From positions 62,001 to 126,000 of the forward strand of contig JACQWY010000019.1 in the NCBI GenBank assembly GCA_016209015.1: a stretch of 64,000 bases of DNA, read 5' to 3'. This document shows positions 37,998 through 50,503 of this stretch, one piece after another. Within the stretch, counting starts at the first letter, position 1. Every line of letters begins with the position of its first letter. A program made the translations under genes and the position numbers. The stretch is from Gammaproteobacteria bacterium. Its GTDB lineage: Bacteria; Pseudomonadota; Gammaproteobacteria; Ga0077536. The notes under the pieces were generated by a model. That model was given only the letters and a program-made list of their open reading frames with translations. It did no database searches and was not told the DNA's origin.

Positions 37998-38081
37998 CGC
38001 TGGGGGATGCACCTGTGCCGGCTAGAACGTCTGAAATTCGATGGATTCGGGCGCACGTGCTGCGCCATTTCCATGCTGCGC

Positions 38082-38423
38082 TCAGGACCGCGGATCGAGC
38101 CCGAACACACGTAGCTCTTGATTACAGCGACAGGCCTTCGCGATGCGCGCGGCCCACGCGACGGCTTCTCCACGCGTAGGGAGTTCAAGCACGGTGAAGC
38201 CGCCGTCGAGCGCGGGTGCCCATGGGTAACCGCCCTCGGCGACTGAGCCGTCGGCGGCCACGAGCACCGGCGGCACGCCTTCGTCGATACCGCCGGCGAA
38301 GACGTAGACGCCGGCTGCTTTCGCTTCCTCGATCACGGCGTGCGCGTCGCACCCCACCGCCTCCCACGCGTCTTCGGGCACGACCATCGCAGCAGCGGGA
38401 AAGGAGATCAGGTACTTGGCCAT
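38082..38423 (-). CDS. YCII/DGPF-domain protein
   Basis: 113 residues: AKYLISFPAAAMVVPEDAWEAVGCDAHAVIEEAKAAGVYVFAGGIDEG, VAADGSVAEGGYPWAPALDGGFTVLELPTRGEAVAWAARIAKAC, the DGPF/YCII arrangement with the 'GG(F/Y)xv(l/i)elp' strand. Often linked to ECF sigma factors, none here. It lies just left of the last attC of the integron; no attC on its own far side, so I treat it as chromosomal. Confidence 0.82.
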   Translation of the reverse strand: MAKYLISFPAAAMVVPEDAWEAVGCDAHAVIEEAKAAGVYVFAGGIDEGVPPVLVAADGSVAEGGYPWAPALDGGFTVLELPTRGEAVAWAARIAKACRCNQELRVFGLDPRS

Positions 38424-38471
38424 GGTGCTGTCTCCGTTGGAAATTGATGTCTGTCGGAAAGCGAGTGTGCG

Positions 38472-38537
38472 GCCCAACGTTCAAGGTGAGCGGCCGGCGG
38501 AGGCCGAAGGCCGCAGCGCAGGCTTGGGCGTCATGTG
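38472..38537 (-). other. attC site, distal end of array
   Basis: GCCCAAC at 38472-38478 followed by GTTC, central palindrome GGCCGGCGGAGGCCGAAGGCC, and a degenerate right core TCATGTG at the DUF6714 stop. Confidence 0.65.
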
Positions 38538-39001
38538 GCGACTACCCGATAAAGAGCATTTGGCACCCACCACTCGTCCAGAACCTGGCACGCGAGATCT
38601 TGATGAGCGGACGACTCCCCGAAGGCGAGAGCTTCCAGGAACCGGGTAATCAGTGACTCCTGCCGCTGGGAGAGAGAGGCGAGGCGTGGGGGATCGCGGT
38701 CCGGCGGACGAAGAGCGCTCAGCAGCGCGTCAACGACGAGGCTGTTGTCGTGCCTGTGGCGGAGAGCGTACTCGATCAAATGGGGCAAGTAATGGCGCCA
38801 CGAAGCTGCATCCAGGTGCGCGATACCCCAGGAGTAGCTCTCGAGGTAAGCGTCACATATCGAGTCGGCCGCTGGATCAAATTGAGAGGGCTGTTCGTAG
38901 TCATCGAGGTCGTTGCCAGCGCGCAGAGTCACCGATGGCGCAGCCGCCACCTCGGGCGCAAAGGCGGAAAACAATTCGGCAACTAGCGAAGACTGGCCCA
39001 T
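38531..39001 (-). CDS. DUF6714-family cassette protein
   Basis: 156 residues, apparently the DUF6714 family: FDPAADSICDAYLESYSWGIAHLDAASWRHYLPHLIEYALRH, SALRPPDRDPPRLASLSQRQESLITRFLEALAFGE, QDLACQVLDEWWVPNALYR. Function unknown. Start ATG 39001 rather than six codons upstream, leaving 10 bases to the neighbouring attC. Last cassette of the array. Confidence 0.8.
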   Translation of the reverse strand: MGQSSLVAELFSAFAPEVAAAPSVTLRAGNDLDDYEQPSQFDPAADSICDAYLESYSWGIAHLDAASWRHYLPHLIEYALRHRHDNSLVVDALLSALRPPDRDPPRLASLSQRQESLITRFLEALAFGESSAHQDLACQVLDEWWVPNALYRVVAT

Positions 39002-39011
39002 AGGACTATGA

Positions 39012-39079
39012 CGCCCCACGTGTCGTCGAGCGGCCGCGAAGCGCGCAGCGCGAAGGCGTCCGCTCCAACGGCTGATTAT
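39012..39079 (-). other. attC site (degenerate cores)
   Basis: Left core GCCCCAC, right core ATTATGT, with a central arm pair around AGCGGCCGCGAAGCGCGCAG and the family-specific GCGTCCGCTCCAACGGCTG. The core bases depart from consensus, so it may recombine poorly. Confidence 0.6.
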
Positions 39080-39150
39080 GTGGCAGCCCCGGCTCGAACA
39101 TGAGGTGTAAGCTCATTTGGATTCCTACACACGGCCGACTGCCATGTTGC
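39079..39150. repeat. Fossil copy of the vapBC cassette 5' region
   Basis: TGTGGCAGCCCC, GCTC, CATGAGGTGTAAGCTCATTTG and CTACACACGGC parallel the stretch 44630-44700 that precedes vapB. The vapB coding part is missing here. Confidence 0.65.
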
Positions 39151-39223
39151 TCTGCGCAGAGGCGGGGTTCGTGGCGAGGAACCAGATCGCCACGAGTGCG
39201 GCTAAGAGCGGGACTTTCAGCAT
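39125..39223 (-). CDS. Putative 32-residue secreted peptide
   Basis: Short frame MLKVPLLAALVAIWFLATNPASAQ followed by SNMAVGRV and TAG (split here). It has a perfect AAGGAG nine bases before ATG 39223 and a textbook signal peptide with AxA cleavage, leaving a nine-residue mature peptide. It may be a real microprotein, or the 5' end of a longer cassette gene cut off where the vapBC-like fossil was joined. The second reading seems more likely. Confidence 0.4.
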   Translation of the reverse strand: MLKVPLLAALVAIWFLATNPASAQSNMAVGRV

Positions 39224-39270
39224 GAGAGTGAATCTCCTTGGTAGTACTGACGTTTGAGCTGAGCGAAGGC

Positions 39271-39663
39271 TCAGGCCGCACTCTCTGCAGATGGACCGGC
39301 GGCTGCCCCCTCCTGGAGGTGAGAGAGGATGTTTACGAGGCGACCGAATGGATCGCGGACAAAGAAGCGCCGCACGCCCCAGGGCTCGTTCGTTGGACCG
39401 TACTCGACGGAGAAGCCAGCCTTCTTGAATGCATGGAGGGCGCCGTCTACGTCATCCACCTCGATGGACAGATCGGGCACCGCTGTTCCTGAACCGCCCT
39501 CGCTCATGAAGCTGACCTGAACCGTCATTCTGGTCTTGCTGCCGTAGGTGCGGATCCAGTTCATGTCCATCAACACTTTCATGCCGAGGATTCGTCCGTA
39601 GAACTCGTCAGCCAGGGCAGGATTTGCGGCGGCGACGTTGGCGACAACACGTTGGACCTTCAA
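39271..39663 (-). CDS. Glyoxalase/bleomycin-resistance-fold cassette protein
   Basis: 130 residues of the VOC superfamily: VQRVVANVAAANPALADEFYGRILGMKVLMDMNWIRTYG, PDLSIEVDDVDGALHAFKKAGFSVEYGPTNEPWGVRRFFVRDPFGRLVNIL. This beta-alpha-beta-beta-beta pattern with the terminal DPFGRLVNIL is typical; members bind metals or antibiotics. Starts with TTG 39663 after AGGAG. Next to it on the right is the truncated attC hit by an IS. Confidence 0.85.
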   Translation of the reverse strand: MKVQRVVANVAAANPALADEFYGRILGMKVLMDMNWIRTYGSKTRMTVQVSFMSEGGSGTAVPDLSIEVDDVDGALHAFKKAGFSVEYGPTNEPWGVRRFFVRDPFGRLVNILSHLQEGAAAGPSAESAA

Positions 39664-39723
39664 GGCACTGCTCCTGCTCGGTTGCGGAAGTCCCCGAGAG
39701 CGGCAGGCGTGTGCCTGCGCGGC

Positions 39724-39768
39724 TTATCGCGCCGTTGAGCGGCGCCGCGGCGCGCAGCGCGGAGGCGG
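39724..39768 (-). other. Truncated attC site
   Basis: TTATCGCGCCGTTGAGCGGC and CGCGCAGCGCGGAGGCG match the left two thirds of the attC at 45284-45351. The expected continuation TCCGCTCC...GTTAGG is missing: IS3-related sequence begins at about 39769. Confidence 0.65.
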
Positions 39769-40045
39769 AGAGTTCCATCGAAAAAGTGGACACCCATTCC
39801 TTGGGTACATAGCGCCTCGAACTCCACTGGCGTCGGGTAATCGAGTGACGAGTGTAGACGCCGGGTGGTGTAGAAATCTACGGTGCCGTCCACGGCCCGT
39901 CGCAGCGAGCCGTTGCGTGAAGCGGCGGCGATGATACATGTCCGACTTCATCGTCTTGAATCACGATTCCGTGTGGGCGCTGTCGTTCATCCGCCGAGGC
40001 CGGTTCACGCTCTGCACGAGGCCGAGCTCAGTGCGGGCGTCCTGG
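39769..40045 (-). pseudogene. IS3-family transposase 3' fossil
   Basis: On the minus strand: TELGLVQSVNRPRRMNDSAHTES, a TGA where Trp is usual, FKTMKSDMYHRRRFTQRLA, then after a frame change AVDGTVDFYTTRRLHSSLDYPTPVEFEALCTQ. This is the C-terminal third of an IS3-type DDE transposase, with the catalytic Glu in HTES. The 5' part is missing, and a nonsense codon (near 39968) and a frameshift (near 39905) kill it. Confidence 0.75.
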
Positions 40046-40059
40046 TGCGCGTTCCGGCC

Positions 40060-40166
40060 CAAGACGGACACGATTCGTTTCGATGGCGGACACCTTTACG
40101 GGCGATGGCGGACAGTGTTCCGGCGTGAAGGCGGACAGTGGGCCGGGGGCAGCGTAAACGGTGTCC
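40060..40166. repeat. GGCGGACA repeats, possible IS end remnant
   Basis: GATGGCGGACAC, GATGGCGGACAG, AAGGCGGACAG on the plus strand and GTGTCCGCCAT inverted, in 80 bases. Multiple short terminal repeats of this kind occur at ends of IS21-like elements, but no transposase remains here. Confidence 0.35.
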
Positions 40167-40193
40167 GCCATGCGCCCGGAACGCTCTCAATCA

Positions 40194-40237
40194 AGCAAAC
40201 GCTCGGCCGCGCTCGAGCGGATGCCCGTTCATGGGCA
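40194..40237 (-). other. Possible degenerate attC site
   Basis: AGCAAACGCTCGGCCGCGCT through CGGATGCCCGTTCATG has inverted CGCTCGGCCGCGCTCGAGCG arms and weak cores. It is where an attC is expected after the small membrane-protein gene. Confidence 0.3.
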
Positions 40238-40259
40238 TTCGCTGCGCAGAAAGTGCAAT

Positions 40260-40463
40260 TCATTTGTGTCGCGGCCAGAACTTCTTTGTTTGAGACAACG
40301 CCAAGCCCAGCAATGCGCCGGAACAACCAGCGATAGCTGCTCGCACCCAAAGTTGCTCAAACTCGCTCCGGATGGCCATGAACACTCCAAAGGCAAGGAC
40401 GCATGCGACAAACAAAATGAGCGCGCCTCTGGGGCTACGCGGGCTATCCGCATTGGTTGTCAT
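40260..40463 (-). CDS. Small two-helix membrane protein (cassette)
   Basis: 67 residues: short polar start, helix at about 14-31 (GALILFVACVLAFGVFMAI), charged turn, helix at about 41-58 (RAAIAGCSGALLGLALSQ) and a basic tail KKFWPRHK. Family unknown. Fits as the only gene of its cassette, reading away from intI. Start ATG 40463, 27 bases from the neighbouring attC core. Confidence 0.6.
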   Translation of the reverse strand: MTTNADSPRSPRGALILFVACVLAFGVFMAIRSEFEQLWVRAAIAGCSGALLGLALSQTKKFWPRHK

Positions 40464-40489
40464 GGTGATGGAGACTCCTCTGGACGGAG

Positions 40490-40543
40490 GCCTGACGACT
40501 GAAATCAGCCGCGGGCCATGTCAGCTCGAACGGCGGGTTAGAT
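40490..40543 (-). other. attC site
   Basis: GCCTGAC at 40490-40496 and GTTAGAT at 40537-40543, with the shared GACTGAAATCAG segment and a GCCGCGGGCC core. Confidence 0.7.
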
Positions 40544-40703
40544 CGGTGCAGTCGGATATGCCCGCAGGTCTACTTGCTCTGAGCGTGTTTGCTGGTTGCT
40601 CGCTCTTTCAGTGTTGTCCGAGCCCGAGCAGTAATGCCATGGGACTTACCGTAGCATCACTCGTTGCGGCCATTCGAGGTTCTCCGGGCATTGATTCCAA
40701 GGA
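40544..40703. other. Cassette without a recognisable gene
   Basis: No plausible frame. Its right part (40633-40703) is a near copy of the 5' region of the antitoxin cassette at 44507-44577, including the ATG, after which the frame runs only ten codons to a stop. Confidence 0.6.
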
Positions 40704-40769
40704 GCCAAATGTGGAGTTGCGGCGCCTGCGCGGCTTCTCGCGCAGGTCGCTGCGAACGCAGGGTTAGGC
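40704..40769 (-). other. attC site
   Basis: Left core GCCAAAT (degenerate), right core GTTAGGC at 40763-40769, central GCGCCTGCGCGGCTTCTCGC with GCGCAGG arms. Confidence 0.7.
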
Positions 40770-40781
40770 CGCAGATTTACT

Positions 40782-41207
40782 TCAAGCACCCGTGACCTCA
40801 ACTTCGTGTTCCGAGCACCACTGCAGCAGTGCACTCTTTGTTGCCTCTGCTTCAGACTCATACCAGCGTTCAAGAGCGCCTCGCGATTCCAGCAAGCCTT
40901 TGTACCGCGCGTATGCGCCTTTGTGGCGGAAGATTTCCTGTGTCTGTGAAAGCAACGCGGGCGCCTGTTCTTCCACGAAGCGCAAGGCAAGGCGTTTCCC
41001 CAAACCAAGTTCGCTCTTTCCCGGAACAAGAAGATAACGATCTGACGTTTCGAGATCGTCCGGTAATTCTTCCTCGGTGTCGATGTAGCTCGAGACGTAG
41101 TGAAACGTGCCCGTGTCCAGAGCAAGATATGCAGAACTCTCCTCGCCACCACCAGCGGCGCTGAACTCATAGGCGGCGGACAGTTCGGAATATGCGACGG
41201 TGACCAT
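40782..41207 (-). CDS. UPF0158-family cassette protein
   Basis: 141 residues resembling UPF0158: YSELSAAYEFSAAGGGEESSAYLALDTGTFHYVS, ETSDRYLLVPGKSELGLGKRLALRFVEEQAP, GALERWYESEAEATKSALLQWCSEHEVEV. The ending 'RWYExExxxTxxALxxWCxE' is the family's strongest feature. Function unknown. ATG 41207 is 17 bases from the neighbouring attC core. Confidence 0.78.
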   Translation of the reverse strand: MVTVAYSELSAAYEFSAAGGGEESSAYLALDTGTFHYVSSYIDTEEELPDDLETSDRYLLVPGKSELGLGKRLALRFVEEQAPALLSQTQEIFRHKGAYARYKGLLESRGALERWYESEAEATKSALLQWCSEHEVEVTGA

Positions 41208-41223
41208 GGCGCTGAATTATGCG

Positions 41224-41290
41224 GCCTAACGACCGAGTTCAGGGGGACGCCGCCGACAGGCCGTGCGTCCCCTGCGACGCAGGGTCAACC
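41224..41290 (-). other. attC site
   Basis: GCCTAAC at 41224-41230 with GACCGAGTTCAG following, inverted GGGGACGC/GCGTCCCC arms, and a poor right core GTCAACC. Confidence 0.65.
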
Positions 41291-41361
41291 CGCAGATTGG
41301 CAACCCGCTCTCGAGGCTATATGCTGGAACCGTTATGGTTCCATTATGGTTGGAGAAAGTC

Positions 41362-41607
41362 ATGCCCACTACGCTGACGTTGAAGAATGTCCCTGACGAC
41401 GTGTACGAGCGCCTGAAGGCCGCGGCGGAGATGCATCGTCGCAGTCTAAACAGCGAGGCCATCGTTTGCCTCGAAACCGTACTCGCACCAGTCAAGCTTG
41501 CCCCCAGCGACCGGCTGGCTCGGGCACGCCAGCTCCGGGCCGCTCTCGGAACTCGAAAGTTTCGCGCCCGCGATATTGACCTTGCGAAGCGTCAGGGACG
41601 TCGATGA
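41362..41607 (+). CDS. Ribbon-helix-helix antitoxin, FitA type
   Basis: 81 residues: TTLTLKNVPDDVYERLKAAAEMHRRSLNSEAIVCLETVL is the Arc/MetJ-like DNA-binding half; the C-terminal RLARARQLRAALGTRKFRARDIDLAKRQGRR would wrap the toxin. Binds its PIN toxin and represses the pair. Antitoxin and toxin overlap by four bases (ATGA at 41604). It lies against the cassette direction, so it must use its own promoter upstream of 41362. Confidence 0.88.
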   Translation: MPTTLTLKNVPDDVYERLKAAAEMHRRSLNSEAIVCLETVLAPVKLAPSDRLARARQLRAALGTRKFRARDIDLAKRQGRR

Positions 41608-41999
41608 TCGTAGTGGACTCGAATGTCCTGGCGTATCTGTATCTTCCGAGCGAATACACAGACGCTGCGGAGGCCCTCCTCGAGAGCGATCCGAACTGGG
41701 TAGCACCCGTGCTTTGGCGAAGCGAGTTTCGAAACATTCTCGCCGGATACCTTCGGCGTGGCTCGTTGACCTTCCTGCAGGCATACGAACTCCAGCGCGA
41801 AGCAGAAGACATGATGAGGGAAGCCGAGTACGAAGTCGCTTCTCTCGCCGTGCTCGAACTCGTTCGCGACAGCGAGTGTTCCGCATACGACTGCGAATTC
41901 GTCGCTCTGGCGCAGCAACTCGGCACGAAGCTCATCACCATGGACGCTAAGGTTCTACGTTCGTTCCCTGGCATCGCGGCCGCGCTCTCTGTGGGCTGA
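41604..41999 (+). CDS. VapC-family PIN-domain toxin
   Basis: 131 residues with the PIN acidic set: D5 in IVVDSNVLAYLYLPSE, Glu in LWRSEFRNIL, Asp in CSAYDCEFVALAQQL and Asp in LITMDAKVLRSFPG. Predicted Mg-dependent ribonuclease that cleaves tRNA or rRNA unless held by the upstream antitoxin. All catalytic residues are intact. Complete two-gene cassette, reversed relative to most of the array. Confidence 0.9.
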   Translation: MIVVDSNVLAYLYLPSEYTDAAEALLESDPNWVAPVLWRSEFRNILAGYLRRGSLTFLQAYELQREAEDMMREAEYEVASLAVLELVRDSECSAYDCEFVALAQQLGTKLITMDAKVLRSFPGIAAALSVG

Positions 42000-42000
42000 C

Positions 42001-42059
42001 GTGTAAGGGAGCGGCCCGCGCGGCTTCTCGCGCAGGTCCGCTCGACTGAAAGGTTATGC
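42001..42059 (-). other. attC site
   Basis: Left core GTGTAAG (degenerate), inverted GCGCGGCTTCTCGCGC centre and right core GTTATGC at 42053-42059, which includes the marR stop. Confidence 0.65.
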
Positions 42060-42515
42060 GTCATAGCTTTCAAGCTTCGTGCGAACCGCAACGATGACGC
42101 TGCGGGTCGTTTCGATGTCCTTGGCCCGAAGCCCCTTCGCAAGCTCGTTGAACCAAGGTGCTTGCAAGCGCATGGCAGCCTCGAATGCCTTCTTGCCAGT
42201 GTCCGTCAGCAGGACGAGCGATGCCCTTCGGTGATGCGGGTTGGGTGCAAAGACAACAAGCCCGTCATTGGCCAGATCATTGACGATGCGCTGAACGTTC
42301 TGACGATTAGCCCCCATGTTGCGTGCGAGCCAGGCGACAGGCTGAGGTTGCTCCGCCGCCACAATGGTACCGAGCACCTGCCAGCGTGCGCTCGTCAAGC
42401 CAATGTCTGCGACTAGTCTGTCGCCTGCCGCGAGCATGCGGTTATTCAATCTGAACAGGTCGAGAGCGAGGTCAGTCAAGGCGGCTCCAGCTGGTGTTCG
42501 TTTAGTTGCGCGCAT
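42054..42515 (-). CDS. MarR-family regulator (cassette)
   Basis: 153 residues: LALDLFRLNNRMLAAGDRLVADIGLTSARWQVLGTIVAAEQPQPVAWLARNMGANRQNVQRIVNDLANDGLVVFAPNPHHRRASLVLLTDTG contains the winged helix and wing of MarR. Divergent from the membrane-protein gene at 42635 across 119 bases, so it probably controls that gene and itself. A whole regulator-target unit in one cassette is unusual. Confidence 0.88.
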   Translation of the reverse strand: MRATKRTPAGAALTDLALDLFRLNNRMLAAGDRLVADIGLTSARWQVLGTIVAAEQPQPVAWLARNMGANRQNVQRIVNDLANDGLVVFAPNPHHRRASLVLLTDTGKKAFEAAMRLQAPWFNELAKGLRAKDIETTRSVIVAVRTKLESYDA

Positions 42516-42634
42516 TTCGTACTATGCCTTGATGAAAGCACTATGGTTTCGCATTGACACCATGGTGTCAAGCTCGTACATTTTCGTCACCCAAGATGGC
42601 GTTGCCTTGGCGGGGTATCTTAAGGAGAACGGTC

Positions 42635-43102
42635 ATGGTCAGAATTATTCATCCAGTCGCTGGCGCGTTAGCAATCCTTTCAATTGCCAGCTTCTGGCTC
42701 TCAACGGCACTATCGGAACTGTTTGGATCCCAAGCGACAGTTATCGCAGTCAAGACTGCCATACCGTGGGGTTTCTTCGTGCTAATTCCCGCGCTGGCGG
42801 CGGCCGGAGGCTCGGGTATTGCGTTGGCCCGAGGAGGAAGGGGTGGACTGGTTGGCATTAAATTCAAGCGCATGCGGCTAATTGCCGCAAACGGCATCCT
42901 GGTCTTGATTCCTTCCGCTTTGTTCCTTGCGTCCAAGGCGGGCGCCACCGAGTTCGATGCGACCTTCTATGCGGTGCAGGCACTTGAACTCGTTGCCGGC
43001 GCAACGAACATCACGCTTCTTGGCTTGAACATGCGCGACGGCCTCAAGATGAAAGGCCGGTTCCGCCGGCGGTCTGCATTACTGCCCAACGGCCGCATAT
43101 GA
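42635..43102 (+). CDS. Four-helix membrane protein (cassette)
   Basis: 155 residues, function unknown. Likely helices at about 6-26 (HPVAGALAILSIASFWLSTAL), 36-60 (VIAVKTAIPWGFFVLIPALAAAG), 84-104 (RLIAANGILVLIPSALFLA) and 116-137 (FYAVQALELVAGATNITLLGL). AAGGAG lies seven bases before ATG 42635. Divergent partner of the MarR gene. The stop (43100-43102) abuts the next attC. Confidence 0.75.
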   Translation: MVRIIHPVAGALAILSIASFWLSTALSELFGSQATVIAVKTAIPWGFFVLIPALAAAGGSGIALARGGRGGLVGIKFKRMRLIAANGILVLIPSALFLASKAGATEFDATFYAVQALELVAGATNITLLGLNMRDGLKMKGRFRRRSALLPNGRI

Positions 43103-43103
43103 C

Positions 43104-43145
43104 GCATTACGATCGAAATCAGTCCGCTCCAACGGCTCGTTAGAT
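43104..43145 (-). other. attC site (short)
   Basis: GCATTAC left core, shared GATCGAAATCAGTCCGCTCC segment and right core GTTAGAT at 43139-43145. Confidence 0.65.
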
Positions 43146-43146
43146 T

Positions 43147-43437
43147 TCACTTCGCCCTCGGCACTGGTGTTTTGGCCAAGCGCTCTGCCATCCGGGTCTG
43201 CCACCCTGGTCCGGTTGCCTTCCAGCGGGCGATGACTTCAGGGGGCCACCGCAGGCTGATAAGTTGCCGGGGATTGGCTGAACGAGGACGACCGCCCTTT
43301 TTGACAGTAGCGCGCTCAAGCATTTCTTCCGTAAGCTCGGGGAGCTCTTCGTATTCCGATGCCTTGATGGTATGGGCGTCCGACTTCGCCAAGTCAGACC
43401 TTGAAGTACGGCGCGAGGCGGGCTTTTTCACGGCCAT
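43147..43437 (-). CDS. brnA: BrnA-type antitoxin
   Basis: 96 residues. Basic N-terminus, then LPELTEEMLERATVKKGGRPRS and the ribbon-helix-helix ISLRWPPEVIARWKATGPGWQTRMAERLAK, the BrnA signature. Neutralises BrnT and represses the operon. Start ATG 43437 lies 44 bases inside the end of the toxin gene, which precedes it, the usual BrnTA order. Confidence 0.88.
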   Translation of the reverse strand: MAVKKPASRRTSRSDLAKSDAHTIKASEYEELPELTEEMLERATVKKGGRPRSANPRQLISLRWPPEVIARWKATGPGWQTRMAERLAKTPVPRAK

Positions 43438-43726
43438 TGGCTTTTCTCATGCTGAATATGTGACGACTGGAACCTCGTGGGGCGTAGCCGACAACGACCA
43501 AACGTCCCTGGAGCATGCCAAGGCAGATAACTCGGCGCTCTCCATAATCCTTGCGCAGGTCGTCGACTTCGAGGGTGAGTCCTCGGAAAACCTCGGGTGC
43601 GTCTTCGAAGTCCAGGCCGCGGTCCTGCAGGGACCGCTCCCGCTTGGCTGCCGTGAAAGAGCGGCGGCGCCGGCGGGAAATGGGGTCAGGTTCGAATTCG
43701 CGGGCGAGCGCCCGGGTACGCGCCAT
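43394..43726 (-). CDS. brnT: BrnT-type toxin with altered N-terminus
   Basis: 110 residues. The BrnT (DUF497) core is present: AAKRERSLQDRGLDFEDAPEVFRG, DDLRKDYGERRVICLGMLQGRLVVVGYAPRG, RHIFSMRKANGREK. Predicted ribonuclease. The normal short first strand (like ITFDPAKR) is replaced by about 28 residues, MARTRALAREFEPDPISRRR onwards, encoded by an inverted-repeat hairpin (43682-43756). The start is therefore ATG 43726 within repeat DNA, or there is a non-canonical start nearer the core. Confidence 0.78.
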   Translation of the reverse strand: MARTRALAREFEPDPISRRRRRSFTAAKRERSLQDRGLDFEDAPEVFRGLTLEVDDLRKDYGERRVICLGMLQGRLVVVGYAPRGSSRHIFSMRKANGREKARLAPYFKV

Positions 43727-43756
43727 AACGTTCGCCGCGAAATCGAACCTGACCCC
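43682..43756. repeat. GGGGTCAGGTTCGA hairpin repeat
   Basis: GGGGTCAGGTTCGAATTCGC (43682-) and its inverted partner ending TCGAACCTGACCCC (43743-43756) enclose about 30 bases. This GGGGTCAG...CTGACCCC form is typical of REP-like hairpins in proteobacteria. It supplies the 5' end of brnT. Confidence 0.75.
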
Positions 43757-43919
43757 AATTCCCTCTACGCGTCTTTCATGATTGCGGGCGCTGCACGAAC
43801 TTCATGACCGCTGGGTCGTAGGTTATGCGCACAAGATTAGTGTAGATACATTAACCCAGGCCGACAAGCAGGGCGCAAATGGCTCCGTTGGAAGCGCCGC
43901 CGCGGCGCTCGGCTGTGAA
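43757..43919. other. Upstream region of the BrnTA cassette
   Basis: 163 bases between the hairpin and the next attC, AT-richer than the surroundings (TTAGTGTAGATACATTAACC). No gene seen; it may hold the pre-hairpin promoter. Confidence 0.35.
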
Positions 43920-43975
43920 ATCTAACGACCGAAATCAGTGGCCCGCCGTCGGCGGGTCGCATTGATTGGTTAGGC
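43920..43975 (-). other. attC site
   Basis: ATCTAAC at 43920-43926, GACCGAAATCAGTGGCCCGC, inverted CCGCCGTCGGCGGG core and GTTAGGC at 43969-43975. Canonical cores on both sides. Confidence 0.85.
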
Positions 43976-43995
43976 ATGTTTGCGGCTGCCAGCGA

Positions 43996-44298
43996 CTAGC
44001 TGAGCAGCTTCGATGCGATGTAGTCGGGATCCTGGGCGGCAAGTAGTACCGCGAGAATGTGGACCGCTTCGTCCGTGTGGGCGAAAAAAACCAGATGTGG
44101 ATATGTGTGAGTCACGGCCCTTCGAAAATCGGGCATGACTTCCTGATACGAGGCGGGGTTTTCGGAAACTCGGAGAAAGGTATTTTCCAGCTCTTGTATG
44201 AAGCGCGCACCCAGACCGGATTGCTTTTCCTCGTATCATCCGTAGCCGTCCTCTATGTCCGATTGCGCGCCCAGTTCGACAAGCAAGTGTCGAGTCAT
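43996..44298 (-). pseudogene. RelE/ParE-type toxin gene with in-frame TGA
   Basis: Starting at ATG 44298, which overlaps the antitoxin stop, it reads ELGAQSDIEDGYG, TGA at 44236-44238, then YEEKQSGLGARFIQELENTF, RVSENPASYQEVMPDFRRA, THTYPHLVFFAH, VLLAAQDPDYI. The RelE/ParE pattern (D-I-x-x-G-x-x-W-Y-E-x-x-x-x-G-L-G) has Trp at the TGA position, so a TGG-to-TGA change truncated the toxin after 20 residues. Everything downstream still looks intact, so the change is recent. Confidence 0.8.
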
Positions 44299-44510
44299 CC
44301 CGTGAGAATCCGCTTCCGTACCTCTGCCCAGGGTACGCCGGCGGGTCCATCGTTCCGATGTGCCGCCAAACGCATAGCCAAGAGCTCTTTCGTTTCAGTC
44401 GTCAATTGTATTGCTTCGGGCGTTTCAGCAATGCTCTCCCAGATTTCTGCGACCAGACGAAGGCGGTCGGAAACCGGGAGTTCGAGCGCGTCGAGAACTG
44501 AAATTGCCAT
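44295..44510 (-). CDS. Addiction-module antitoxin (TIGR02574-like)
   Basis: 71 residues: ISVLDALELPVSDRLRLVAEIWESIAETPEAIQLTTETKELLAMRLAAHRNDGPAGVPWAEVRKRIL. The 'LpxxDRlxLvaelWeSI' start and 'PaGvpWaEVrxxil' end match the family that pairs with RelE/ParE toxins. ATGA overlap with the toxin pseudogene. Now apparently an orphan antitoxin. Its 5' region is duplicated at 40633-40703. Confidence 0.85.
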   Translation of the reverse strand: MAISVLDALELPVSDRLRLVAEIWESIAETPEAIQLTTETKELLAMRLAAHRNDGPAGVPWAEVRKRILTG

Positions 44511-44573
44511 GGGACTTACCGTAGCATCACGCGTTGCGGCCGTTCAAGGTTCTCCAGGCATTGATTCTTAGGA

Positions 44574-44633
44574 GCCTAACGACCGAATTCAGTGGCCTGC
44601 CGTCGGCGGGTCTGCTGCATTGACTGGTTATGT
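44574..44633 (-). other. attC site
   Basis: GCCTAAC at 44574-44580, GACCGAATTCAGTGGCCTGC, CCGTCGGCGGG core and GTTATGT at 44627-44633. Confidence 0.82.
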
Positions 44634-44695
44634 GGCAGCCCCTGCTCTATCATGATGTGTACATTCATTTGATACGCTACACACGGCGGAGAACT

Positions 44696-44890
44696 ATGCG
44701 AACCAACATCGTTATAGACGACAAGCTGATTGCTGAGGCAATCAAAGTTACCGGTGCTTCCACGAAGAAGGAAGCGGTCGAACTCGGTCTCAAGGCGCTT
44801 ATTCAGCTTAAGCGCCAGGAGCAGATCCGGGGCCTCCGGGGAAAGCTCAAGTGGAAGGATGATCTGGACCGGATGCGACTCGACGCATGA
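44696..44890 (+). CDS. vapB: VapB-type antitoxin
   Basis: 64 residues: RTNIVIDDKLIAEAIKVTGASTKKEAVELGLKALIQL is the ribbon-helix-helix of the VapB (DUF2191) group; the tail GLRGKLKWKDDLDRMRLDA is the toxin-binding part. GGAG lies about seven bases before ATG 44696. Coupled to vapC by ATGA at 44887. Reads against the array, so it carries its own promoter between 44634 and 44695. Confidence 0.9.
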   Translation: MRTNIVIDDKLIAEAIKVTGASTKKEAVELGLKALIQLKRQEQIRGLRGKLKWKDDLDRMRLDA

Positions 44891-45288
44891 TTCTGGTCGA
44901 TTCGAGCGTCTGGGTGGATTATTTCAATGGGATCCGCTCGACAGAGACGGACTTCCTCGATGCGACTCTCGGGATTGAGCCTGTCGCTATTGGTGACCTA
45001 ATCCTGGCCGAAGTGCTTCAGGGATTTCGCTCGGAATCGGATTACCAGGCGGCAAAATCGCTGCTCTTGGGCCTAACTGTTTTCGAGTTACTAGGTCAGG
45101 ACCTAGCGGTTAGGACCGCAGACAATTACAGAATGCTTCGGCGCCGAGGCGTAACGGTCCGGAAGACCGTGGACTGCATTATCGCAACTTACTGTATCGA
45201 GAGAGGCCTCCCGCTACTCTACTCCGACCGTGACTTCGACCCGTTCGTGAAGAGCCTCGGCTTAGTATCCGCGCTACCTGCCACATAA
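44887..45288 (+). CDS. vapC: VapC-family PIN-domain toxin
   Basis: 133 residues. Acidic set intact: D5 in ILVDSSVWVDYFNG, Glu in LILAEVLQGF, Asp in VRKTVDCIIATYC and Asp in LLYSDRDFDPF. Predicted ribonuclease toxin controlled by the VapB upstream. The stop is followed at once by the attC (ACATAACG). Confidence 0.92.
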   Translation: MILVDSSVWVDYFNGIRSTETDFLDATLGIEPVAIGDLILAEVLQGFRSESDYQAAKSLLLGLTVFELLGQDLAVRTADNYRMLRRRGVTVRKTVDCIIATYCIERGLPLLYSDRDFDPFVKSLGLVSALPAT

Positions 45289-45351
45289 CGCGCCGATGAG
45301 CGGCGCCGAAGCGCGCAGCGCGGAGGCGTCCGCTCCATTGGCTGGTTAGGT
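45284..45351 (-). other. attC site
   Basis: Left core ACATAAC, arms GCGCCGATGAGCGGCGCC and AGCGCGCAGCGC, then TCCGCTCCATTGGCTG and right core GTTAGGT at 45345-45351. Template for the truncated site at 39724. Confidence 0.78.
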
Positions 45352-45355
45352 GACT

Positions 45356-45724
45356 TCACCTGAAGATATGCTCGATCAGCCATGCATCATATTCGTCTGC
45401 ATTCTTTGGCTTAAGTCCCAGTTTCTCTGCGTCGGCTCTGGCCCTCTGGATGGCGTAATACGCTTGGTCCAGTTGATTGAGAGTGAGGCTATCTTCGTCT
45501 CGACTGTCATGGTGCTTGAGTCTGTTATGAAACCAGTTCCATTCTCGGTAAGCGTCCTTTTCTTCCCTATCTCCTGCGATGCTAAAGCCCGTTTTTGCTC
45601 TTACCTCCTCGATTGCCTTCCAAGTCGCCTCGGCGCTTGGGCTCTTGCCTTGCTGAGTGAGAAGCCCAGCCAGGATTCCATCCGCCGCTGCTGCGAGGGT
45701 AATGGACGAAAGCCAATGCTCCAA
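45356..45724 (-). CDS. Hypothetical cassette protein, second gene
   Basis: 122 residues, family not recognised. Helical throughout: EHWLSSITLAAAADGILAGLLTQQGKSPSAEATWKAIEEVR, REEKDAYREWNWFHNRLKHHDSRDEDSLTLNQLDQAYYAIQRARADAEKLG. The HHD segment and helix pair resemble HEPN-like helical proteins, an impression only. It lies 21 bases downstream of another cassette gene with no attC between, so the two share a cassette. Confidence 0.65.
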   Translation of the reverse strand: MEHWLSSITLAAAADGILAGLLTQQGKSPSAEATWKAIEEVRAKTGFSIAGDREEKDAYREWNWFHNRLKHHDSRDEDSLTLNQLDQAYYAIQRARADAEKLGLKPKNADEYDAWLIEHIFR

Positions 45725-45745
45725 TAGAAAGAGGCTTATCGCGTC

Positions 45746-46129
45746 TTAAAGCTGGATGAGCGCTATTTGCGATTTTTCGATCGTCTCGGTCGCTGTATAT
45801 CCTAGGGACGGAAATGCGGGTCGCGTTGCCGGGGTTACGTCGTGCGATTCCTCTACGCGAACGTCTAGCCACGGGAAGCAGTCTGTTATGTCCTTAACAA
45901 GCTCTTCTACGGTACGCGGGCTCGATTCGTCATAGAACGTAATCCCATCCCCTTCCGGAAAGAGGCTCGCCCAGTATCCACGAAGTCTCAGTTGTGTCAG
46001 AGACTCTCGAATCAGGACGTCGAATCCAGTCGTTTCGAATGGGCTCCACAGCAGGTTTCCGGTGTAGGGCGCATTCGGCGGCTTCAATCGGGAAATAACT
46101 TTCTGCACGGCGTTACCCAAGTCACCCAA
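45746..46129 (-). CDS. Hypothetical cassette protein, first gene
   Basis: 127 residues if started at TTG 46129; TTG 46120 or GTG 46108 are equally possible. Features: KVISRLKPPNAPYTGNLLWSPFETTGFDVLIRESLTQLRLRGYWASLFPEGDGITFYDE, RTVEELVKDITDCFPWLDVRVEE. Mixed alpha/beta, soluble, family not recognised. The start region overlaps the attC core, a common arrangement for the first gene of a cassette. Confidence 0.6.
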   Translation of the reverse strand: MGDLGNAVQKVISRLKPPNAPYTGNLLWSPFETTGFDVLIRESLTQLRLRGYWASLFPEGDGITFYDESSPRTVEELVKDITDCFPWLDVRVEESHDVTPATRPAFPSLGYTATETIEKSQIALIQL

Positions 46130-46183
46130 CGTACGAAATCAGCGGGCCGCCGTAGGCGGGTCCGCTGCATTGACAGGTTAGGC
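46124..46183 (-). other. attC site
   Basis: ACCCAAC at 46124-46130, ACGAAATCAGCGGGCCGCC, GTAGGCGGGTCCGCTGCATT and GTTAGGC at 46177-46183. Confidence 0.85.
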
Positions 46184-46200
46184 TTGACGGAAGCTAGCAT

Positions 46201-46572
46201 TCAAAATGCTTTGTCTGCGTTCGGCTCAAGGCCCAACGAGAGCACCCAGTCTTTGAGCCGTCCATAGTCATATATCAAGCCTTCTAGTTCGCTGTCTGCA
46301 ACTCTAATTCTCTGCGGGGAGCATTGTTCGGAAAGGCAGCCCGCTTCGGCGCAGCTGTGATATTTCGCGCTCTCTGCAGATATCTCTTCGGCAAAGTAAT
46401 GATCAGGATCCTCGAAGTAATGGTAGTGCTCAGTATCGTCCGCGTCTTCGGGATAGATGTTGGTTCCGATGTATATGAGTGTCTCAATTACAGGGATCGG
46501 CAGCTTGCGTAGATAGTAGGCGCAAGAAAAATATGCTCGGCCGACGATGAGATTTGGCTTTGTCGGTACCAT
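46201..46572 (-). CDS. Hypothetical cassette protein
   Basis: 123 residues, acidic, no known family. KPNLIVGRAYFSCAYYLRKLPIPVIETLIYIGTNIYPEDADDTEHYHYFEDPDHYFAEEISAESAKYHSCAEAGCLSEQC and a C-terminal LEGLIYDYGRLKDWVLSLG. Four cysteines and several histidines could bind metal. Start ATG 46572 lies eight bases after the attC core, ideal for expression from a cassette promoter. Confidence 0.7.
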   Translation of the reverse strand: MVPTKPNLIVGRAYFSCAYYLRKLPIPVIETLIYIGTNIYPEDADDTEHYHYFEDPDHYFAEEISAESAKYHSCAEAGCLSEQCSPQRIRVADSELEGLIYDYGRLKDWVLSLGLEPNADKAF

Positions 46573-46580
46573 CTCTTCAA

Positions 46581-46709
46581 GCCTAACGTTCGAGTTAACC
46601 GGACCGCTACGGCAAGCGTTGTAAGCCCGGACTGAGATGATGCACCATGTGCCTCAGGCCGGGCTTACAACGCTTGCCGTAGCGGGTCCGGTTGAACGAG
46701 TGGTTAGGC
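46581..46709 (-). other. Long attC site, first in the array
   Basis: 129 bases. GCCTAAC (46581) and GTTAGGC (46703) cores, inner GAGTTAACC/GGTTGAACG boxes, and arms of about 33 bases (46597-46630 and 46659-46693) complementary except for one unpaired base in GGGTCCGG. Loop of about 28 bases. Confidence 0.92.
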
Positions 46710-46710
46710 G

Positions 46711-47268
46711 TCACTGTTTGCGTGCCCTTGCTTTGGACTCTTCGATCTTGCGTACTTCCGAGATCACGGAGTGACCCGCGTAGAAGAGTTCAGACATTCT
46801 GTCTTTGCCTTCGCCAAGTAGTTGCTCTTCGGCTGAGTAGGTCAAGATTCCGCCGACCGTGAGTAGATAGAAACAAACCTTCCCTGCGGAAGGCAAGGGC
46901 GTGGCCGAAGTAGGACTGGCTAGACGTTGGAGGCGCGCGGCAACGATCAACATCTTCTCAGCTTCAGTGCGCACGGCATCGTGTTGGCCGCCACCGATGA
47001 CGCCACCACCGCTCGAGAAATACAAGCTGGTACTTCCATCAGCGAGCGCGACGAGACTGTAGGTAGTCCCATCCTCCAGCCCTGTTTCCATCAATACGCC
47101 CCAGGGGCGGTCGGCATAGACTGCTGAGGACAACCCCAAGTCAATCGGCTTCACGGCCAGCGCCTTGGTCCTCAGTTCGGTCATCAAGGACGCAGGAGGT
47201 GCCTTCGGCGCCTGTGCCGTCGCACCGAACCCGATGGCAGCGAGCATTGTTGCGAGGATGCGCTTCAT
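46711..47268 (-). CDS. Secreted hypothetical protein, first cassette
   Basis: 185 residues. Signal peptide MKRILATMLAAIGFGATAQA, then a soluble alpha/beta protein: LMTELRTKALAVKPIDLGLS, WGVLMETGLEDGTTYSLVALADGSTSLYFSSGGGVIGGGQHDAVRTEAEKMLIVAARL, GKVCFYLLTVGGILTYSAEEQLLGEGKDRMSELFYAGHSVISEVRKIEE. Family not recognised. Nearest gene to attI, hence the most recently acquired cassette and the one best placed for expression. Confidence 0.75.
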   Translation of the reverse strand: MKRILATMLAAIGFGATAQAPKAPPASLMTELRTKALAVKPIDLGLSSAVYADRPWGVLMETGLEDGTTYSLVALADGSTSLYFSSGGGVIGGGQHDAVRTEAEKMLIVAARLQRLASPTSATPLPSAGKVCFYLLTVGGILTYSAEEQLLGEGKDRMSELFYAGHSVISEVRKIEESKARARKQ

Positions 47269-47282
47269 GTGCGTGTGGTGAC

Positions 47283-47350
47283 GCCTAACCTTTAATGGTC
47301 TTCCTAAAACCGCTCTCAGGAATTTTCCTAAGAGACGAAATCCTTTTGGG
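47283..47350 (-). other. attI recombination site
   Basis: GCCTAAC at 47283-47289 (GTTAGGC on the array strand) marks the junction between the first cassette and the intI leader. AT-rich leader with TTCCTAA repeated (47311, 47335) may be integrase-binding sites. The right limit is a guess. Confidence 0.6.
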
Positions 47351-47452
47351 CTTTTAGGATAGGATATTCGGGCAACTCCCGAAGCGTCAAAAGGTTACAT
47401 GGATGGTAACCGGCTTTCGGGCCCTTCTTCACCGGGCATGGAGGCTCGCTTC

Positions 47453-48433
47453 ATGAATCAAACTCGTCTGCTCGATCGCGTGCGTGAGGCGCTGCGGGTG
47501 CGTCATTACTCCTTGCGGACGGAGGAGACGTATCTGCAGTGGATCAGGCGCTTCATACTTTTCAACGACAAGCGGCATCCTGATGAGATGGGGGAAGAGG
47601 AGGTTCGGAATTTTCTGAGTCACCTGGCGGTGGTCGGCAAGGTCGCGGCGTCGACTCAGAATCAGGCACTGTCGGCACTGCTCTTCCTCTACGGCAAGGT
47701 CCTCGATCGCGAGCTCGATTGGCTGCAGGGCATGACTCGGGCGAAGCAGCCGAAGCGGCTGCCGGTGGTGTTGACGCGCGAGGAGGTCGCACGCTTGTTC
47801 GCGGAGATGAGCGGGACGAATGCGCTCGTCGCGTCGCTGCTCTACGGCACCGGAATGCGCGTGATGGAGGGTGTGCGGCTGCGGGTGAAGGACGTCGACT
47901 TCGCGTACCGGGTCATCACCGTACGCGAGGGCAAGGGCAACAAGGATCGCAGCGTGCCGTTGCCGGAGGCCATCGTCGCGCCCTTGCAGGCGCAGCTCGC
48001 GCGGGTGCGTGCGCTTCACAACGCGGATTTGGAGCTCGGCTTCGGCTCCGTCTATCTGCCGCACGCCCTCGAGCGGAAGTATCCGAGCGCGAATCGCGAA
48101 TGGGGCTGGCAGTACGTGTTTCCCGCGACGAAGCGCAGCGTCGATCCGCTCACGGACGTCGTGCAGCGCCATCATTGGAGCGAGCAGCGCGTGCAGCGTG
48201 CATTGCGGCGCGCCGCGCAACTCTCCTTCATCACGAAGCGGATCAGCCTGCACGTGTTGCGTCACAGCTTCGCGACGCACCTGCTCGAAGCGGGCTACGA
48301 CATCCGCACGATCCAGGAGCTGCTCGGCCACAGCGACGTCACGACGACGATGATTTACACGCACGTTGCGGGGCGCGGCGCGGCCGGCGTGCGCAGCCCG
48401 CTCGATGGTCTGGCGGGCACACGAAAGGACTAG
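47453..48433 (+). CDS. intI: Integron integrase IntI
   Basis: 326-residue tyrosine recombinase. N-terminal SAM-like domain from LRVRHYSLRTEETYLQWIRRFI. Catalytic set: Arg in YGTGMRVMEGVRLRVKDVDF, Lys in REGKGNKDRSVPLP, HxxR in LHVLRHSFATHLLEAGYD, His in LLGHSDVTTT and the nucleophile Tyr in MIYTHV. The IntI-specific insertion between the Lys and HxxR boxes is present (ALERKYPSANREWGWQYVF), separating it from XerC/D. Start ATG 47453 has GGAGG eight bases upstream. All catalytic residues are intact, so the integron may be active. Confidence 0.95.
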   Translation: MNQTRLLDRVREALRVRHYSLRTEETYLQWIRRFILFNDKRHPDEMGEEEVRNFLSHLAVVGKVAASTQNQALSALLFLYGKVLDRELDWLQGMTRAKQPKRLPVVLTREEVARLFAEMSGTNALVASLLYGTGMRVMEGVRLRVKDVDFAYRVITVREGKGNKDRSVPLPEAIVAPLQAQLARVRALHNADLELGFGSVYLPHALERKYPSANREWGWQYVFPATKRSVDPLTDVVQRHHWSEQRVQRALRRAAQLSFITKRISLHVLRHSFATHLLEAGYDIRTIQELLGHSDVTTTMIYTHVAGRGAAGVRSPLDGLAGTRKD

Positions 48434-48515
48434 CGGGCGCTTCCTCCGACCAGCGCACGGCGGGGCTGGCCGCTCACGGCCGCGTCTTCCATCGCGGTTG
48501 GCCGTGACCGCATGA

Positions 48516-48545
48516 CAGCCCGCGCCCGTCGCCGGGCGTGGGCTG
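48516..48545 (+). terminator. Hairpin after intI
   Basis: CAGCCCGCGCCCG / CGGGCGTGGGCTG with a four-base loop, followed by CCGTGCTTTCTC. Stable stem but a poor T-tract; possible terminator between intI and the convergent DUF4253 gene. Confidence 0.4.
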
Positions 48546-48605
48546 CCGTGCTTTCTCACGCGATGCCGGCGCGGGCATCACGCCGCATGCCTCAGGCCCG
48601 CGCGC

Positions 48606-49343
48606 TCAATACCACCAGAAATACCAGGAGCGCGCATTCAGCAGCGCCACCGCGAGATTCTCTTCGTTGCCGGCCCATTCGTGAACGACGTCGGGGCAGT
48701 AGGCGAGCTGCTCGTGCGCGAGCTCGAGCGCGGCCTCGAGCGTCGTCGGCGGGCACGCCACGGAGAACTCGAGCGCGTCGACTGTAACGGCCGTCGCCAC
48801 CGCGCCGTAGCGCTCGTACCAGTGCTTCGCGAAGGCGACGTGCACTTCCGGCGTCGGCGTCTCGTCGCAGCCGCCGGGCCAGACGCGGGCCAGCACCTCC
48901 CAGGGCACCCCGATCGGCACGAGGCCGATCACCACTTCGGGCTTCGGGATGCGGCTGCGCGGTTCGCAGGCGAGGCTCAAGGGCTCGGGTACGTGCGGGA
49001 CGTCTCCGTCGCGGTGGGAGATCTCGAAACATTCCGGCGCTTCGTGCTCGCGTCGAAGCACCCACTCGGCGACCTGCGTCGCGAGGCCGCGGCGCCGGCA
49101 TTCGGCGTAGTCGAGGTCCGCGGCCGCGATACATTCCAGCGTCGCGGCGAGCTCGTCCCGGTCGCCGAAGACGACGGGCACGATGTCGCGGCGGCGTGCG
49201 CGCAGCGCGCGCAGGGTCTCGAACGCGTCGGCGCCGGGGAGCGTCAGGATTTCGAACGGCGCGTCGGCGGTGTCGCGCGTGCGCTGCTCGTTCACGGGAT
49301 GATGGGGCCTGCCGTCCGGCAGGAACTTCGATGGATTGACCAT
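48606..49343 (-). CDS. DUF4253-family protein
   Basis: 245 residues: VPVVFGDRDELAATLECIAAADLDYAECRRRG, WEVLARVWPGGCDETPTPEVHVAFAKHWYERYGAVATAVTVDALEFSVACPPTTLEAALELAHEQLAYCPDVV, ending NARSWYFWWY. The 'HWYexYGA' and terminal 'WYFWW' are DUF4253 hallmarks. Function unknown. Very strong GGAGGAG before ATG 49343. Confidence 0.85.
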   Translation of the reverse strand: MVNPSKFLPDGRPHHPVNEQRTRDTADAPFEILTLPGADAFETLRALRARRRDIVPVVFGDRDELAATLECIAAADLDYAECRRRGLATQVAEWVLRREHEAPECFEISHRDGDVPHVPEPLSLACEPRSRIPKPEVVIGLVPIGVPWEVLARVWPGGCDETPTPEVHVAFAKHWYERYGAVATAVTVDALEFSVACPPTTLEAALELAHEQLAYCPDVVHEWAGNEENLAVALLNARSWYFWWY

Positions 49344-49504
49344 GGTTCTCCTCCTTGAGAATCGCCGCGTGCGCGGCCGGGGTCGTCATGTGCGAGACAC
49401 GGATCCGCCGTCCTGGCTCACCGTGCGTGGCGATCTTCGCGCCTCGCGCCCGCCGGCGCAATACCGGCCGGCATGCGCTCCGCTGATCCGGCGTTTCGGG
49501 AAGA

Positions 49505-49537
49505 CGCGATCGATGCGCCTCCAGCGTCGGCACATCC
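49505..49537 (+). repeat. Single copy of the dispersed CGATCGATGCGCC motif
   Basis: GCGATCGATGCGCCTCCAGC then GTCGGCACATCCC. Lone copy without the internal hairpin region, between the DUF4253 gene and the alpha/beta hydrolase. Confidence 0.75.
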
Positions 49538-49615
49538 CACAGGGCCGCGCCCACGGGAAGGGGCGAGCGGAAATGCGCCGCGAGCGCAGTGGCCGCGGCG
49601 CCGTCCGTCAAGCCG

Positions 49616-50503
49616 TCACAAGCCCGCGATGAATGCGTCGATCTCCTTCGCAACCTGCAGGCGCCCGCTGCCCGTCATGATCGAATAGTGGTTCGTGTCC
49701 GGGATGTCGATGTGGCGGAGGTTCGCGAGCTTCGCGCATTTCCCGGCGACGGCGGCGGGCGGCATCAGCGGTTGCGGCTGGTTCAGGATGCCGCGCGGCG
49801 CGGTGAGCAGGATCATCGGGAGATCGACGCCGTCGATCAGCGTGACGATCTCGGGTTCCTGCAGATCGGAGGCGTCGGCGGCGACGGCCTCGGCGTTCAC
49901 GCGCGACCGCATGTGCGGTGCTTCGCCGACGAGATCGTAGGCGACGTAGGACTCGACGTAGGTGTTCCAGGCGCCCTCGTCCTGGAACGCGGGATGCTTG
50001 CGCCAGAAGTCGGCATAGGCTTCGGCGCTCTCGAAGCGCATCTCGAGGCGCGCGAGCGCGGGGCCGAGCACGCCTTTGATCACCTGCTCCTTGCTCACGC
50101 CTTCGCGCGGCGGCAGCGCGATGCCGCCGTCGACGAGGACGAGGCCGCGCAGCCGGCCCGGTGCGAGCAGCGCGAGCTCGAGCGCGATGTAAGCGCCGAG
50201 CGAATGGCCGGCGCAGACGCACTGTTCGATACCGTAGTGATCGAGCACGGCGAGGAGATCCGCGGCGTGCACTTTCAAACCGTAGGGCGGCGGCAGGCCG
50301 TTGCTCGCGCCGCGGCCGCGCAGGTCGGGCGCGAGGACGGTGTAGCCGCCCTCGAGATTGTCGACGACCGGCGGCCAGGCGCAATGCGAGGCGGTGATGC
50401 CGTGGACGGCGAGGATCGCGTTCCTGTCGTCACCGGGCCAGCGGGCGAGCGTGTAGTCGCCGCCCGGAACGGGGACGGTCTCGATGAGTTGCGGTTTCTT
50501 CAT
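49616..50503 (-). CDS. Alpha/beta hydrolase
   Basis: 295 residues, classical alpha/beta fold. Oxyanion region AVHGITASHCAW, nucleophile elbow CAGHSLGAYIALELALLAPGR with Ser at about 99, LVLVDGGIALP, catalytic Asp probably in VDLPMILLTAPRG and His in IPDTNHYSIMTGSGR. Resembles epoxide-hydrolase/haloperoxidase-like members, substrate unknown. Start ATG 50503. Confidence 0.9.
   Translation of the reverse strand: MKKPQLIETVPVPGGDYTLARWPGDDRNAILAVHGITASHCAWPPVVDNLEGGYTVLAPDLRGRGASNGLPPPYGLKVHAADLLAVLDHYGIEQCVCAGHSLGAYIALELALLAPGRLRGLVLVDGGIALPPREGVSKEQVIKGVLGPALARLEMRFESAEAYADFWRKHPAFQDEGAWNTYVESYVAYDLVGEAPHMRSRVNAEAVAADASDLQEPEIVTLIDGVDLPMILLTAPRGILNQPQPLMPPAAVAGKCAKLANLRHIDIPDTNHYSIMTGSGRLQVAKEIDAFIAGL

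What the first reader, a model, noticed from the sequence alone, without database searches (positions are those of the whole stretch)
43996..44298. RelE/ParE toxin killed by a TGG-to-TGA codon, antitoxin kept
The toxin reads well through its whole length except TGA at 44236-44238 where family members have Trp before Tyr-Glu. The antitoxin is intact and coupled. This is a snapshot of TA decay, where loss of the toxin leaves an orphan antitoxin that could still neutralise relatives.
Basis: partly seen in the sequence, partly recalled or inferred. Interest (0 to 1): 0.6.

Follow-up and report, generated by a model that had tools for sequence, protein, structure and literature searches.

The report
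Broken toxin gene in integron cassette
A bacterial integron carries a small toxin-antitoxin cassette whose toxin gene has a stop codon about a fifth of the way in while the antitoxin gene is intact, which is an ordinary case of toxin-antitoxin decay.

Summary
On the minus strand, 44298-43996 encodes a ParE/RelE-superfamily toxin (PF05016, 31.3 bits, above cut-off) interrupted by one in-frame TGA at codon 21 (44238-44236). The antitoxin (44510-44295; PF09720/TIGR02574) is intact and overlaps the toxin start by ATGA. The "TGG-to-TGA" history is not shown: in 60 homologues the site is Trp 25, Tyr 23, Phe 7, and the closest intact relative (53% identity) has Ser. Codon-position conservation after the stop equals that in the antitoxin, and there are no indels, so the break is recent or a sequencing/assembly error, which cannot be excluded without reads. 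Several homologous toxins carry in-frame stops beside intact antitoxins, and orphan antitoxins are well documented. Best reading: a recently inactivated type II toxin-antitoxin cassette, with the 20-residue toxin fragment inactive and the antitoxin now free-standing. Whether that antitoxin still neutralises anything is untested; the only other pair of its antitoxin family found in this genome shows no detectable sequence similarity. Ordinary; low interest.

The parts
43996..44298 (-). ParE/RelE-superfamily toxin gene, 101 codons including stop, disabled by an in-frame TGA at codon 21
   Evidence: PF05016 match over residues 11-90 at 31.3 bits; stop found independently; 53% identity to an intact relative
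44236..44238 (-). premature TGA; the equivalent site is usually aromatic (W 25, Y 23, F 7 of 60) and Ser in the closest relative
44295..44510 (-). intact antitoxin of the TIGR02574 / Unstab_antitox family, 71 aa, overlapping the toxin start by ATGA
   Evidence: PF09720 48.1 bits, TIGR02574 60.8 bits
43926..44579 (-). the integron gene cassette (654 bp) holding antitoxin, broken toxin and attC
   Evidence: bounded by two GTT^ recombination points; DNA shared with a second cassette begins at the upstream boundary
43920..43975 (-). attC site of this cassette (GCCTAAC ... GTTAGAT)
44574..44634 (-). attC site of the neighbouring cassette on the attI side (ACATAAC ... GTTAGGC)
44505..44579 (-). cassette leader up to the antitoxin start codon; 91% identical over 75 bp to 40635-40709 in the same window
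47399..48433 (+). integron integrase IntI, divergent from the cassette array
   Evidence: TIGR02249 479.6 bits against a cut-off of 265

Best explanation
This is a type II toxin-antitoxin gene cassette of a chromosomal integron whose ParE/RelE-superfamily toxin was recently inactivated by a nonsense mutation. Shown: translation from the toxin start must end after 20 residues, before nearly all of the toxin domain, while the antitoxin is intact. Inferred: the 20-residue product is inactive, so the cassette no longer kills cells that lose it and no longer helps hold the array together, and the antitoxin persists as a bystander that has not yet decayed.
For: Domain match and TGA at codon 21. Intact antitoxin above both curated cut-offs. 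IntI plus flanking attC sites. Codon-position identity to the closest intact relative is 0.66/0.72/0.39 after the stop and 0.61/0.73/0.41 in the antitoxin, so most of the divergence happened under protein-level constraint. Query-specific changes at otherwise conserved toxin positions fit early relaxation. Nonsense toxins beside an open antitoxin frame recur in L028, L048, L054, L074 and L093. Integron toxin-antitoxin cassettes and orphan antitoxins are both documented (PMC11023631; PMC7192599; PMC7354431).
Against: No raw reads, so a base-calling error is not excluded. No conspecific genome was available. Only one codon separates the frame from an open one, so loss of function rests on the absence of read-through or useful re-initiation, which was not tested.
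Confidence: 0.85

Rival explanations
1. The stop is a sequencing or assembly error and the cassette holds an intact, working toxin-antitoxin pair.
For: A single isolated stop with no indels, and codon-position constraint after it as strong as in the antitoxin.
Against: The genome scores 100% complete with 0.11 contamination; isolated substitution errors are rare in short-read assemblies (general knowledge). Extra departures at conserved toxin positions hint at relaxed constraint.
Confidence: 0.08
2. The orphan antitoxin is kept because it is useful: it neutralises related toxins from incoming elements or other cassettes (anti-addiction), so losing the toxin was adaptive.
For: Intact antitoxin frame. 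Anti-addiction by chromosomal antitoxins is documented for CcdA (PMC7354431). A second cassette front with the same leader lacks the pair, so a related cassette may once have been in the array.
Against: Antitoxin conservation is no higher than that of the dead toxin frame. The only other PF09720 pair found in the genome shows no similarity by BLASTP. No close relative was found in plasmids (best about 35%) or viral contigs.
Confidence: 0.06
3. A shorter product is made from an internal start, such as the ATG at toxin codon 55 preceded by AGGA, or by read-through of the TGA, and has a function.
For: AGGA lies a few bases before the in-frame ATG at 44136.
Against: The SD-like bases encode the 'YQEV' stretch shared with L011 and so are explained by coding. 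The 46-residue fragment lacks the first half of the fold and the conserved His is replaced. No recoding signal was looked for or seen, and stop codons in related broken toxins vary (TAA, TGA, TAG).
Confidence: 0.02

Closest known systems
ParE/RelE-superfamily toxins (PF05016) with TIGR02574 / PF09720 antitoxins
   Same: Gene order antitoxin then toxin with ATGA overlap, domain matches, conserved Y-E-x(4)-G-L-G-x(2)-F segment; nearest solved structure is toxin ParE2, 8c26
   Different: Premature TGA at codon 21; the 'AVxH' His and the 'FP' Phe are replaced
Toxin-antitoxin cassettes of sedentary chromosomal integrons (for example the Vibrio cholerae superintegron, PMC11023631)
   Same: Whole module carried in one attC cassette of a chromosomal array
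   Different: Toxin is broken; array of at least several kilobases rather than well over a hundred cassettes; no consensus sigma-70 promoter found in the cassette
Orphan antitoxins left by degraded toxin-antitoxin pairs (PMC7192599, PMC7354431)
   Same: Antitoxin intact, toxin disabled by a premature stop
   Different: Here the toxin is still full length at the DNA level, so the loss looks recent

Membership tests
ParE_toxin PF05016 | Profile match above the curated cut-off | tested here: met
   31.3 bits against 23, read through the stop
ParE_toxin PF05016 | Complete open reading frame | tested here: not met
   TGA at codon 21
ParE_toxin PF05016 | Toxicity and its target (gyrase or ribosome-bound mRNA) | not testable with these tools
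   needs an expression assay
TIGR02574 / PF09720 antitoxin | Profile match above cut-off and intact frame | tested here: met
   60.8 and 48.1 bits, no stop
Type II toxin-antitoxin operon | Antitoxin upstream and translationally coupled to toxin | tested here: met
   ATGA overlap at 44298-44295; same order and overlap in most homologous loci, L011 included
Type II toxin-antitoxin operon | Own promoter | tested here: inconclusive
   no sigma-70 consensus match in 43900-44650; leader conserved with a second cassette
Integron gene cassette | attC with imperfect palindrome and GTT core next to the genes | tested here: met
Chromosomal integron | Integron integrase next to the array | tested here: met
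   TIGR02249 479.6 bits; the window lies in a 271,691-base contig of a 5.7-Mb genome

The most novel reading that the evidence does not exclude
A chromosomal integron keeps a toxin-dead, antitoxin-live cassette as a 'vaccine' that lets related toxin-antitoxin cassettes be gained or lost without killing the cell.
Probability: 0.06. Interest if true: 0.5.

Novelty: new member of a known kind. Interest (0 to 1): 0.15.

Why it matters
Toxin-antitoxin cassettes are thought to stabilise integron arrays by killing cells that lose them. A cassette with a dead toxin is the state in which that hold should be lost, so it is a usable natural example for testing cassette loss, but it is one example of a well-known decay route.

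Tried and rejected
Alternative genetic code: the stop is the only one in this frame and related broken toxins use TAA, TAG and TGA, so no code change is implied. An intact second copy in the genome: none found. Very close relatives: none in 58 related genomes by DNA, in viral contigs or in plasmids; the genome collection gave only one at about 53%. A claim that toxins break more often than antitoxins: stops appear in roughly 5 of about 155 listed PF05016 matches and 4 of about 157 listed PF09720 matches, which differ in length and score, so no such claim is made. Rfam had no match in 38000-50000. Structure prediction was not run because the stop removes nearly all of the domain.

Full report
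Observation. The stretch 43996-44298 read on the minus strand starts with ATG, meets TGA at codon 21 (44238-44236) and otherwise stays open to a TAG at the end. Read through with an unknown residue at the stop, it matches ParE_toxin PF05016 over residues 11-90 at 31.3 bits, above the cut-off of 23, and its nearest solved relative is toxin ParE2, 8c26. A genome-wide search found this single copy and counted the same internal TGA. The upstream gene, 44510-44295, is an intact 71-residue antitoxin matching PF09720 and TIGR02574; its stop overlaps the toxin start as ATGA.

Was it Trp? The site is Trp in 25, Tyr in 23, Phe in 7, His in 3, Ser in 1 and Arg in 1 of 60 homologous sequences. The one closer relative, L011 (the same contig as L040, Gammaproteobacteria MAG FW602_bin.35; 52-53% amino-acid identity), has Ser there, codon TCC. 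TGA is one step from codons for Trp, Cys, Ser, Leu, Arg and Gly. Trp is a reasonable guess but the ancestral codon is undetermined.

How old? Against L011 the toxin frame after the stop is identical at codon positions 1, 2 and 3 in 66, 72 and 39% of codons, the antitoxin in 61, 73 and 41%; toxin and relative align without indels. Both genes therefore diverged under protein-level constraint for most of their history. Relative to the family the toxin also has Tyr for the near-invariant Phe of the FP motif, Leu for the His of AVxH and Lys for a C-terminal Arg, none of them shared with L011; two more departures are shared with it and look like subfamily features. This fits a recent loss with slight relaxation. 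A sequencing error cannot be excluded.

Context. The gene at 47399-48433 is an integron integrase (TIGR02249, 479.6 bits), divergent from the array. Sites with paired GTT cores bound the toxin-antitoxin pair at 43920-43975 and 44574-44634, and related sites lie at 46124-46183 and, less complete, near 41227 and 40500. The pair is thus one 654-bp cassette (44579-43926), read in the same direction as its attC. Neighbouring modules include an inverted VapBC pair (44630-45288), BrnTA (43726-43147) and a second antitoxin/PIN pair (41263-41999), so four toxin-antitoxin modules lie in a short stretch and only this one was seen to carry a broken toxin. DNA around the closest relative L011 has attC-like motifs by eye; this was not tested.

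A second cassette front. The 75 bp from the cassette boundary to the antitoxin start codon recur at 40635-40709 with 91% identity, and similarity ends at ATGGCA. Either a sister cassette lost its genes or the leader is shared by unrelated cassettes; the evidence does not decide. The leader was not found in 58 related genomes.

How unusual? Homologous toxins with a single in-frame stop beside an open antitoxin frame were seen in L028, L048, L054, L074 and L093. Orphan antitoxins, many from degraded pairs, are abundant in Klebsiella (PMC7192599), and a review discusses their possible anti-addiction use as not yet shown to be common (PMC7354431). Toxin-antitoxin cassettes in chromosomal integrons are known to counter-select cassette loss (PMC11023631).

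Neutralising relatives. In this genome the only other PF09720 match is an antitoxin on contig C26 followed by an intact ParE-like frame (L062); neither protein of that pair aligns with the present one by BLASTP. Cross-neutralisation inside this genome is therefore unlikely by sequence, though untested.

Verdict. A confirmed, ordinary instance of toxin-antitoxin decay in an integron cassette.

Noticed in passing
43680-43770: REP-like inverted repeat (GGGGTCAGGTTCGA ... TCGAACCTGACCCC) with dozens of related copies in the genome; it overlaps the 5' end of the BrnT frame (43726-43394), whose predicted N-terminus is partly made of repeat sequence.
   Followed up: partly
40635-40709: 75-bp copy (91%) of the toxin-antitoxin cassette leader, running from the cassette boundary to ATGGCA, with no toxin-antitoxin genes after it.
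   Followed up: partly
46581-46709: Very strong 129-base inverted repeat with GCCTAAC/GTTAGGC ends, an unusually long attC-like site after the first cassette.
   Followed up: no
L044, about 89-379: Planctomycetota relative of the toxin whose frame also shows TGA directly before the YEEKQEGLG motif, near a contig end; possibly a frameshift rather than the same event.
   Followed up: no
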